IMG/VR virus record: IMGVR_UViG_3300021425_000046
Location: 1-55,533 of that record
Origin: a virus
Length of the DNA stretch: 55,533 nt
Reading direction: 5' to 3' (one strand)
A program made the position numbers and the translations under genes. Numbering within the stretch: the stretch's first letter is position 1; each line of letters starts with the position of its first letter. The notes under the pieces were generated by a model. The model was not told where the DNA came from. It ran no database searches and worked only from the letters and a program-made list of their open reading frames with translations. Of the stretch, positions 12,727-14,289 are shown piece by piece.

Positions 12727-13246
12727 AAAATTTAAATCCTATCTAGTAGGTAAATTTGAAAACAAGAAACAAGCATTTAAAAATCCTAGTAAGTTTGCCT
12801 ACATTAGAATTACTCATGTTGATATTGGCGATGGTTTATTTTATGGAGAACAAGCATATAATTACAATTTAAAATCTCCTTACCGACAGTTTGTATTAGA
12901 GCCAGTTGAGGAGGACGATCAGATTCGTATTTTAAATTATGAAATTTTAGACAAACATCAGTTTAAAAATTGTCAAAACCTTGACAAATTAGATAGATCT
13001 ATGCTAAAATTGAAAGATGGTTGTGATGTAGTTGTAAAACTTGTAAACAATGTTGCTTTTCAAGGTGGTATAGAAGGTTGTGATTGTTATGTTAAATGGA
13101 TGGATCGTGACACTTATCTAAAAAATCAGATAGAGTTAGGATTAGATTATTATTTTGTTATTGACCAAGGATTTTGTGCAGAACACCATCATCAAATTTG
13201 GGGTTCTAAATATGGTAGATTTGAATTTGCTAGAATGCCTGTGTAG
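12719..13246 (+). CDS. cpeT: CpeT/CpcT-type phycobiliprotein lyase
   Basis: 175 aa from ATG 12719, which overlaps the previous gene. The CpeT family signature is clear along the whole length: FAYIRITHV, GEQAY, SPYRQFV, KDGCDVVVK, AFQGGIEGC, then DQGF and HHQIWGSKYGRFEF at the C-terminus. CpeT/CpcT proteins attach bilin chromophores to cysteines of phycoerythrin or phycocyanin beta subunits; cyanophage copies are known auxiliary metabolic genes thought to tune host light harvesting. Length is close to other members. It lies in the tRNA island, not beside other photosynthesis genes. Its last ten bases, including the TAG stop, belong to tRNA-Thr. An internal promoter-like site lies at 12981. Lyase activity versus a chaperone or bilin-binding role cannot be judged from sequence. 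Confidence 0.9.
   Translation: MIEKFKSYLVGKFENKKQAFKNPSKFAYIRITHVDIGDGLFYGEQAYNYNLKSPYRQFVLEPVEEDDQIRILNYEILDKHQFKNCQNLDKLDRSMLKLKDGCDVVVKLVNNVAFQGGIEGCDCYVKWMDRDTYLKNQIELGLDYYFVIDQGFCAEHHHQIWGSKYGRFEFARMPV
12981..13010 (+). promoter_or_regulatory. Candidate internal promoter TTGACA-18-TAAAAT in cpeT
   Basis: TTGACA 12981-12986, TAAAAT 13005-13010 with TGC before it. The -35 lies in a perfect inverted repeat, TTGTCAA-AACC-TTGACAA (12970-12987). It could drive tRNA-Thr, about 230 bases downstream. Confidence 0.45.
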
Positions 13247-13310
13247 CTCAGCTGGATAGAGCAACGGTTTTGTAAACCGTAGGTCGTCGGTTCAAGTCCG
13301 ACCGTGGGCT
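13237..13310 (+). tRNA. tRNA-Thr(UGU)
   Basis: Acceptor GCCTGTG/CGTGGGC with three G-U pairs, D stem GCTC/GAGC, anticodon stem ACGGT/ACCGT with loop TTTGTAA (anticodon TGT), T stem GTCGG/CCGAC. The first ten bases are also the end of cpeT; the conserved tRNA bases T8-A9-G10 provide the TAG stop. Confidence 0.9.
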
Positions 13311-13434
13311 TTGAAAGGACAGGAAATGTCCAGTTCTTTCAAACGTAGGTGCCAAAACCGCTCCTCATCCCTAGTATTCTGTGGGTGAGTGAAAGTAAAG
13401 AGGGGTAACATAGGTAAAGTTATCTCCACCTACC
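13311..13434 (+). ncRNA. Candidate structured RNA between tRNAs
   Basis: No plausible gene here. Two structural units are seen. Unit 1 (13311-13342): TTGAAAG with CTTTCAA enclosing GGACA/TGTCC. Unit 2 (13345-13433): GTAGGTG pairs with CACCTAC 75 bases later and encloses a hairpin CTCATCC/GGGTGAG (13364-13389). T4 has non-tRNA stable RNAs in its tRNA cluster, so an analogous RNA is possible; a decayed tRNA or processing element is the alternative. Confidence 0.4.
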
Positions 13435-13439
13435 ACAAA

Positions 13440-13517
13440 TCTTCTGCGTAGTCTATTGGTAAGGACACCCCGATAAGGGAGTTGGAAACTGGGTTCGATT
13501 CCCAGCCAGAGGAGCCA
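13440..13517 (+). tRNA. Degenerate or unusual tRNA, Ile(GAU)-like
   Basis: T arm CTGGG/CCCAG with loop TTCGATT, acceptor TCTTCTG/CAGAGGA, discriminator G and an encoded CCA (13515-13517) are tRNA-like. The D arm is GTCT/GGAC but is separated from the acceptor by four bases. The anticodon arm is abnormal: CACCC-CGATAA-GGGAG has a six-base loop and an A/A mismatch. It resembles an Ile(GAU) arm (CTGATAA) that lost U33. It is the only tRNA here with CCA encoded. Probably a pseudo-tRNA; a functional variant cannot be excluded. Confidence 0.5.
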
Positions 13518-13560
13518 TCATTTGCGCTGGAAAGATAAACCAGAATGCCGTGATGGTTAT

Positions 13561-13643: not shown

Positions 13644-13671
13644 CGAATTTGGGTTTTCCAAATTCGTTTTT
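13644..13671 (+). terminator. Intrinsic terminator after tRNA-Leu(UAG)
   Basis: Perfect nine-base stem CGAATTTGG/CCAAATTCG, loop GTTTT, then TTTTT. A second hairpin GGGGAA/TTCCCC follows near 13685-13700 without a T run on this strand. Confidence 0.85.
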
Positions 13672-13878: not shown

Positions 13879-14289
13879 ATGTCTTTTCATAAATTTGTAT
13901 TTGGCGAAGAGAGGCCTGTTAAGGGAATAACTAGGGTTTGTAAAATTTGTAATATCGAAAAACCAATAGAATGTTATCACGTAAATCGTGGTTCGACACA
14001 TGATCGTCGTAGTGAGTGTAGAGATTGTAGAAAATCTGGGGGTGCAGCTAACTCAAAAGCAGCTATTAAATTGATGAAAAAACACAATATCACTAGACCA
14101 AAATTAGGCACTCCGTGTGCTTGTTGCGGTAGAACTGATAAACCGTTAGTTTGTGACCATATTCATGGGACAGACATAATACGTGGATTTACATGTGATA
14201 ATTGTAACGTGGGTATTGGAAGACTTGGTGATAACCTTTCTTCGCTAGAAAATGCTGTTAAATATCTTAGTGGAAAATATTTAACTTAA
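13879..14289 (+). CDS. Recombination endonuclease VII-like protein
   Basis: 136 aa. Two zinc-ribbon halves with CxxC pairs (CKICN, CRDC; later CACCGR and CDNC) and the core VCDHIHG-TDIIRGFTCDNCNVGIGRLGDN, which fits the endonuclease VII family (T4 gp49; His-Me finger/HNH fold). T4 gp49 is 157 aa and resolves branched DNA before packaging. Shorter versions lying among tRNAs in phages are often free-standing homing endonucleases, and the position between tRNA-Leu and tRNA-Asn fits that too. Nuclease fold is confident; Holliday resolvase versus homing role is open. Confidence 0.8.
   Translation: MSFHKFVFGEERPVKGITRVCKICNIEKPIECYHVNRGSTHDRRSECRDCRKSGGAANSKAAIKLMKKHNITRPKLGTPCACCGRTDKPLVCDHIHGTDIIRGFTCDNCNVGIGRLGDNLSSLENAVKYLSGKYLT

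What the first reader, a model, noticed from the sequence alone, without database searches (positions are those of the whole stretch)
13311..13434. Possible non-tRNA structured RNA in the tRNA island
The stretch has no gene but holds a nested hairpin and a long-range seven-base pairing enclosing another seven-base hairpin. T4 carries stable non-tRNA RNAs in its tRNA cluster whose functions are unclear; this may be a cyanophage counterpart.
Basis: partly seen in the sequence, partly recalled or inferred. Interest (0 to 1): 0.6.

Follow-up and report, generated by a model that had tools for sequence, protein, structure and literature searches.

The report
New structured RNA in cyanophage tRNA island
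Between the transfer-RNA genes of this virus of photosynthetic bacteria sits a genuine, previously uncatalogued small folded RNA, shared by about a hundred related viruses, that is probably cut out together with the tRNAs and works on its own, possibly as a decoy against host defences.

Summary
Window 13311-13434 holds two RNA elements between tRNA-Thr and a tRNA-like gene: a trailer hairpin (13311-13342) and a three-way-junction RNA (13345-13438). Pattern scans of IMG/VR gave 96 further viral contigs carrying the junction RNA, plus two found later; 61 sequences are distinct. P2 and P3 show many compensating changes (14 of 26 pairs, 166 cells; shuffled mean 52). No Rfam 15 family matches; no isolate phage (50,697 records) carries it by blastn. 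It occurs once per record in ten large contigs. In 94 of 95 full copies it ends 4-7 nt before a tRNA or tRNA-like gene, with varied neighbours. The same islands carry solitary abiF RNAs in the same position, without the Abi_2 toxin, plus other recurring uncatalogued RNA modules. Best reading: a trans-acting small RNA released by tRNA processing, perhaps a protein-binding decoy (inferred). It is not a homologue of T4 rnaC/rnaD as tested, only the same kind of thing.

The parts
13345..13438 (+). Three-way-junction RNA ('RNA A') including its 3' tail CACAA
   Evidence: 97 nhmmer hits including the window, 61 distinct full-length sequences; model R1 score 107.7 bits (the window is part of the model, so this score is by construction)
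13345..13351 (+). P1 5' strand GUAGGUG (pairs with 13427-13433 CACCUAC)
   Evidence: 100% paired in 61 sequences; six of seven pairs never vary, one is U-A or U-G
13352..13361 (+). Junction J1/2, CCAAAACCGC in the window; CCAAA(U)ACC conserved
   Evidence: conserved columns
13362..13391 (+). P2 hairpin, variable in sequence and length; its tip is exchangeable
   Evidence: 8 pairs with changes on both sides; P2 tip replaced by the J-type hairpin in L110
13392..13400 (+). Junction J2/3, strongly conserved (GUNAAGA)
13401..13426 (+). P3 hairpin, 8 positions, loop AUAGGUAAA, abutting P1 3' strand
   Evidence: 6 of 8 pairs with changes on both sides; loop RUAGGUA conserved
13427..13433 (+). P1 3' strand CACCUAC
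13434..13438 (+). 3' tail CACAA (consensus CAYAW), followed by the tRNA-like gene
   Evidence: tail and spacing table
13311..13342 (+). Hairpin J, directly after the tRNA-Thr 3' end, apical module GGAAAUGUCC
   Evidence: z -4.1; the same hairpin with a changing outer stem occurs in S-PM2 and about 20 viral loci
13237..13310 (+). tRNA-Thr(UGU) upstream
13440..13514 (+). tRNA-like gene with a 5-nt GAUAA anticodon-arm loop and a bulged A; not expected to decode
   Evidence: ARAGORN gives a 2-letter anticodon; 12 arm variants show a covarying stem, loop GAYAA 12/12, bulged A 12/12
12981..13010 (+). Candidate promoter of the unit tRNA-Thr to tRNA-Leu(UAG)
   Evidence: TTGACA-18-TAAAAT, 11 of 12; consensus match only
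13644..13666 (+). Candidate intrinsic terminator after tRNA-Leu(UAG)
   Evidence: 10-pair stem then T-rich tail; consensus match only

Best explanation
It is a new family of about 90-nt structured small RNA encoded as a cassette in tRNA islands of T4-like cyanophages. It is transcribed with the tRNAs; cleavage at the 5' end of the next tRNA (RNase P) and trimming after the preceding tRNA free an RNA ending in CAYAW (inferred from position). The free RNA folds into a three-way junction in which P1 and P3 can stack, displaying an invariant P1, junction core and RUAGGUA loop (fold shown by covariation in P2 and P3; stacking inferred). It then acts in trans by binding a specific partner, most likely a protein. 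The favoured partner is a host defence or stress RNase/toxin that it titrates as an RNA decoy, as abiF RNA does for AbiF (inferred). Confidence: real RNA about 0.97; trans-acting and released by tRNA processing about 0.7; counter-defence decoy about 0.3.
For: Covariation in P2 and P3 against shuffled and slid controls. G-U pairs on the + strand with no A-C. Ends 4-7 nt before a tRNA or tRNA-like gene in 94 of 95 copies, with neighbours of six kinds (82 tRNA-like, 6 Asn, 3 Thr, 1 each Ala, Leu, Val), so it is not a leader of one gene and almost never precedes an ORF. One copy per record in ten records of 65-154 kb. abiF RNA, a documented RNA antitoxin active in trans (PMC12373285), sits 4-7 nt upstream of a tRNA in the same islands, once per record in 8 of 16 records, while the Abi_2 toxin family is found in none of the 16. 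P1, junctions and P3 loop are held constant while P2 is free, as expected for a binding site plus a peripheral arm.
Against: No transcript, partner or phenotype is known. Processing is inferred from position. The abiF parallel is one of location only; no relation in sequence or fold is seen. No cellular RNA that it could mimic was found, although the genome pattern used matches only about half of the viral members. The window itself has no abiF RNA.
Confidence: 0.6

Rival explanations
1. A cis-acting processing or stability element: the stable junction shields the tRNA precursor or sets the RNase P/RNase E cleavage site of the following tRNA.
For: Constant 4-7 nt spacing to the following tRNA; S-PM2 has a plain hairpin with the same CAUAU tail at the same place; other spacers hold different hairpins.
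Against: A processing element need not hold its junction and loop sequence constant; only one copy per record although the islands have many tRNAs; the following gene differs between viruses; L107 has no tRNA directly behind it.
Confidence: 0.2
2. A self-cleaving ribozyme that cuts the polycistronic tRNA transcript.
For: Small three-way junction with an invariant core and exchangeable outer arm, placed between RNAs that must be separated.
Against: No match to any Rfam ribozyme family, even at E up to 10; only one copy per record; tRNA enzymes already cut there; no known catalytic core recognised.
Confidence: 0.1
3. A riboswitch-like metabolite sensor, as proposed for manA and wcaG, which also occur in these loci.
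For: Complex conserved core; manA RNA lies between tRNAs in L013 and L069, and wcaG and PhotoRC-II occur in related loci (PMC2864571).
Against: Nothing regulable in cis: the next gene is a tRNA or tRNA-like gene in 94 of 95 copies; no expression platform or ORF follows.
Confidence: 0.07
4. Chance folding or a decaying tRNA remnant.
For: tRNA islands often hold decayed tRNAs; short spacers can fold by chance.
Against: Many compensating changes across 61 sequences and an invariant core; the tRNA model does not match it.
Confidence: 0.02

Closest known systems
Phage T4 rnaC and rnaD (species 1 and 2 RNAs)
   Same: Small RNAs encoded in the tRNA cluster of a T4-like phage, abutting tRNAs, role unknown (PMC3014915; PMC9697503).
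   Different: No relation by covariance model; predicted folds differ, and rnaC carries a tRNA-like T arm.
abiF RNA (Rfam RF03085)
   Same: Occurs once per record in the same islands, 4-7 nt upstream of a tRNA, without its toxin gene.
   Different: 37-nt motif, unrelated sequence; known as a type III-like RNA antitoxin (PMC12373285), whereas the partner of RNA A is unknown.
manA and wcaG RNAs (RF01745, RF01761)
   Same: Structured RNAs of cyanophages and marine metagenomes; found in related loci.
   Different: Different families, proposed cis-regulators (PMC2864571); the window RNA does not match them.
GOLLD and ROOL RNAs
   Same: Phage/prophage structured RNAs near tRNA islands, function unknown (PMC12286853).
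   Different: Much larger RNAs that form oligomeric cages; no Rfam match here.

Membership tests
T4 rnaC/rnaD | Sequence/structure homology to the T4 RNAs | tested here: not met
   Model R1 finds nothing in the T4 locus or whole T4 genome
T4 rnaC/rnaD | Non-tRNA gene inside a phage tRNA cluster, same strand, abutting tRNAs | tested here: met
T4 rnaC/rnaD | Stable discrete transcript in infection | not testable with these tools
   no transcript data available
Any Rfam 15 family (manA, wcaG, PhotoRC-II, abiF, glnA, ribozymes, GOLLD, ROOL) | Covariance-model match at gathering score | tested here: not met
   Only tRNAs match in the window; nothing relevant up to E = 10 at 13200-13560
Conserved structured RNA | Compensating changes above shuffled and slid controls | tested here: met
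   166 cells against 52.6 +/- 6.7 shuffled; 0 of 500 as high; slid versions at most 44
   Six of seven pairs invariant, one U-A/U-G; invariance is neutral, not contrary
RNA antitoxin / decoy (abiF-like) | Binds and inhibits a toxin or defence protein | not testable with these tools
   only the shared genomic position is shown
Riboswitch / cis-regulator | Placed in the 5' UTR of an ORF | tested here: not met
   Next gene is a tRNA or tRNA-like gene in 94 of 95 copies
tRNA | Cloverleaf with T arm, tRNA model match | tested here: not met

The most novel reading that the evidence does not exclude
Cyanophage tRNA islands are expression platforms for an exchangeable arsenal of small decoy RNAs, released by tRNA processing, that neutralise RNA-bound host defence toxins; solitary abiF RNA is one item, and RNA A is another aimed at an unknown cyanobacterial system.
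Probability: 0.25. Interest if true: 0.85.

Novelty: new variant of a known kind. Interest (0 to 1): 0.63.

Why it matters
Phage tRNA clusters have carried unexplained stable RNAs since the T4 work, and no role is known. This is a new, well-defined family with about 100 natural variants, a clear invariant core and a model that can be searched in transcriptomes. The same slots hold other structured RNAs, including a known RNA antitoxin without its toxin, so the long-open question of what such RNAs do becomes testable as 'which host protein does each bind?'.

Tried and rejected
Rfam at gathering score and at E up to 10: nothing but tRNAs and chance. blastn of the RNA against 50,697 isolate phages, two classes: only chance matches. 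The 74% S-PM2 match over the whole region is due to the tRNAs and hairpin J; S-PM2 has another insert at the RNA's place and no model match. GTDB pattern scan: 5 hits, none confirmed by nhmmer or the model. Thirteen of the 64 first pattern hits were chance matches elsewhere. I considered a switch in which the P3 loop RUAGGUA, a near copy of the P1 5' strand, takes over the CACCUAC strand; in cis it looks sterically impossible (an 8-bp helix with a 1-4 nt linker), so it is left as an idea for dimers or a trans target. A tRNA-like CCA end was considered; CCA is not invariant (CCU in a few). An extra pair P2a (14-57) is supported only in the short-P2 class. A scan that allowed other P1 3' strands listed only two new copies, both with the usual P1.

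Full report
Observation. The interval holds two elements. Hairpin J (13311-13342) starts at the 3' end of tRNA-Thr. RNA A (13345-13438) is a three-way junction: P1 GUAGGUG/CACCUAC, P2 from UCCUCAUCC to GGGUGAG(U)GA, and P3 GGGGUAAC-AUAGGUAAA-GUUAUCUC, whose 3' strand runs straight into P1. The whole stretch folds better than all 200 shuffles (z -4.55), the other strand does not (z -1.6); RNA A alone has z -2.97 and J z -4.1. There is no conserved reading frame.

Homologues. One exact 16-mer gave 64 viral contigs, of which 51 carry the whole RNA. Three more patterns raised this to 97 nhmmer hits including the window, and a fourth added two. Full-length copies number 95 with 61 distinct sequences, of 82 to 99 nt, in two classes: a main class (CCAAAACC, longer P2) and a short class (CCAAAUACC; L107, L110, L111, L113, L116, L118, L119). 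IMG/VR is redundant, so the count of independent viruses is lower. The RNA is not in isolate phages at blastn sensitivity, nor in six whole phage genomes by model, including S-PM2, S-CREM1 and T4. In ten large viral records it occurs exactly once.

Structure. Of 26 pairs, 14 have changes on both sides that keep the pair; 166 such cells against a shuffled mean of 52.6, and no slid version exceeds 44. P2 and P3 carry all of it; P1 does not vary except U-A/U-G. P1 is therefore held by sequence as well as pairing, together with CCAAA(U)ACC, GUNAAGA, and the loop RUAGGUA. In L110 the P2 tip is the J-type hairpin GGUUGGAAAUGUCC, so the tip is exchangeable. The + strand is the RNA: 140 G-U cells, no A-C. 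Alignment A2 was fitted to the model and leans towards the structure; A1 was made by MAFFT without it and gives nearly the same figures.

Context. In the window the RNA lies in a compact unit: candidate promoter 12981-13010, tRNA-Thr, J, RNA A, tRNA-like gene, a small hairpin (13520-13556), tRNA-Leu(UAG), terminator 13644-13666. The promoter and terminator are consensus matches only. CpeT lies upstream and an endonuclease VII-like protein downstream; S-PM2 has CpeT at the same place. In 94 of 95 copies the RNA's P1 ends 4-7 nt before a tRNA or tRNA-like gene (a few of these are damaged or cut by the contig end); the one exception is L107. The neighbours differ: 82 tRNA-like, 6 Asn, 3 Thr, and one each Ala, Leu and Val (my count from the table). 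In isolate phages the slot between tRNA-Thr and the tRNA-like gene is filled by other RNA modules. The arrangement is that of exchangeable cassettes.

Mechanism. Because the next gene is a tRNA, RNase P should cut within a few bases of the RNA's 3' end, and processing of the tRNA before it frees the 5' side; this is inference from established tRNA maturation. There is nothing to regulate in cis, which favours action in trans. The closest functional parallel is abiF RNA: in the same islands it also lies 4-7 nt upstream of a tRNA (ten loci), once per record in 8 of 16 records over the family cut-off, and no Abi_2 protein was found in the same 16 records. abiF RNA neutralises the AbiF toxin by direct binding in C. 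difficile (PMC12373285). Phage tRNAs themselves have been shown to evade defence systems (PMC11555353, abstract). I therefore favour an RNA that binds a host protein as decoy, but only the existence of the conserved RNA, its fold, strand and position are shown; release, partner and function are inferred.

Known kinds. T4 rnaC and rnaD are the nearest kind, with unknown roles (PMC3014915), expressed late and confirmed by Northern blot (PMC9697503), but they are not homologues by the tests here. manA, wcaG and PhotoRC-II occur in related loci; GOLLD and ROOL are much larger RNAs near phage tRNA islands (PMC12286853). No search of metagenome contigs or transcripts was possible, and only a pattern, not the model, was run over the bacterial genomes.

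Noticed in passing
window 13440-13514; also S-PM2, S-RIM8, S-SZBM1, S-RIM32, S-CREM1, DSL-LC03: A conserved tRNA-like gene, unannotated in these phage records, whose anticodon arm has a covarying stem, an always bulged A and a 5-nt GAYAA loop; it is not expected to decode and may be a second non-tRNA RNA.
   Followed up: partly
window 13520-13556; also L066, L067, L107, L013 and S-RIM50: Small hairpin GCGCUGGAAAGAUAAACCAGAAUGC with an invariant GGAAAGAUAAACC core, recurring next to different tRNAs.
   Followed up: partly
L065-L069, L128, L014, L047, L059, L061, L107: Several more recurring structured spacers in cyanophage tRNA islands with no Rfam match, e.g. UCUGUUAUAUCC..GGUAUAU, GGGGUUCGGCUCUACCCC..GGGCCGCC, UUGGUAGUCGUUAGGC..GACGCCAA, CCUAAG..CUUAGGUCGGGGACUUGAUCACCCCCG.
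   Followed up: partly
L001, L021, L041, L047, L067, L069, L082, L107, L110, L111: Solitary abiF RNAs 4-7 nt upstream of a tRNA, without any Abi_2 protein in the 16 records tested.
   Followed up: partly
L013 6872-7081, L069 2753-2967: manA RNA lies between tRNAs, directly abutting tRNA ends, which does not fit a purely cis-regulatory role.
   Followed up: no
window 13879-14289: Endonuclease VII-like protein inside the tRNA island, a possible agent of cassette exchange.
   Followed up: no
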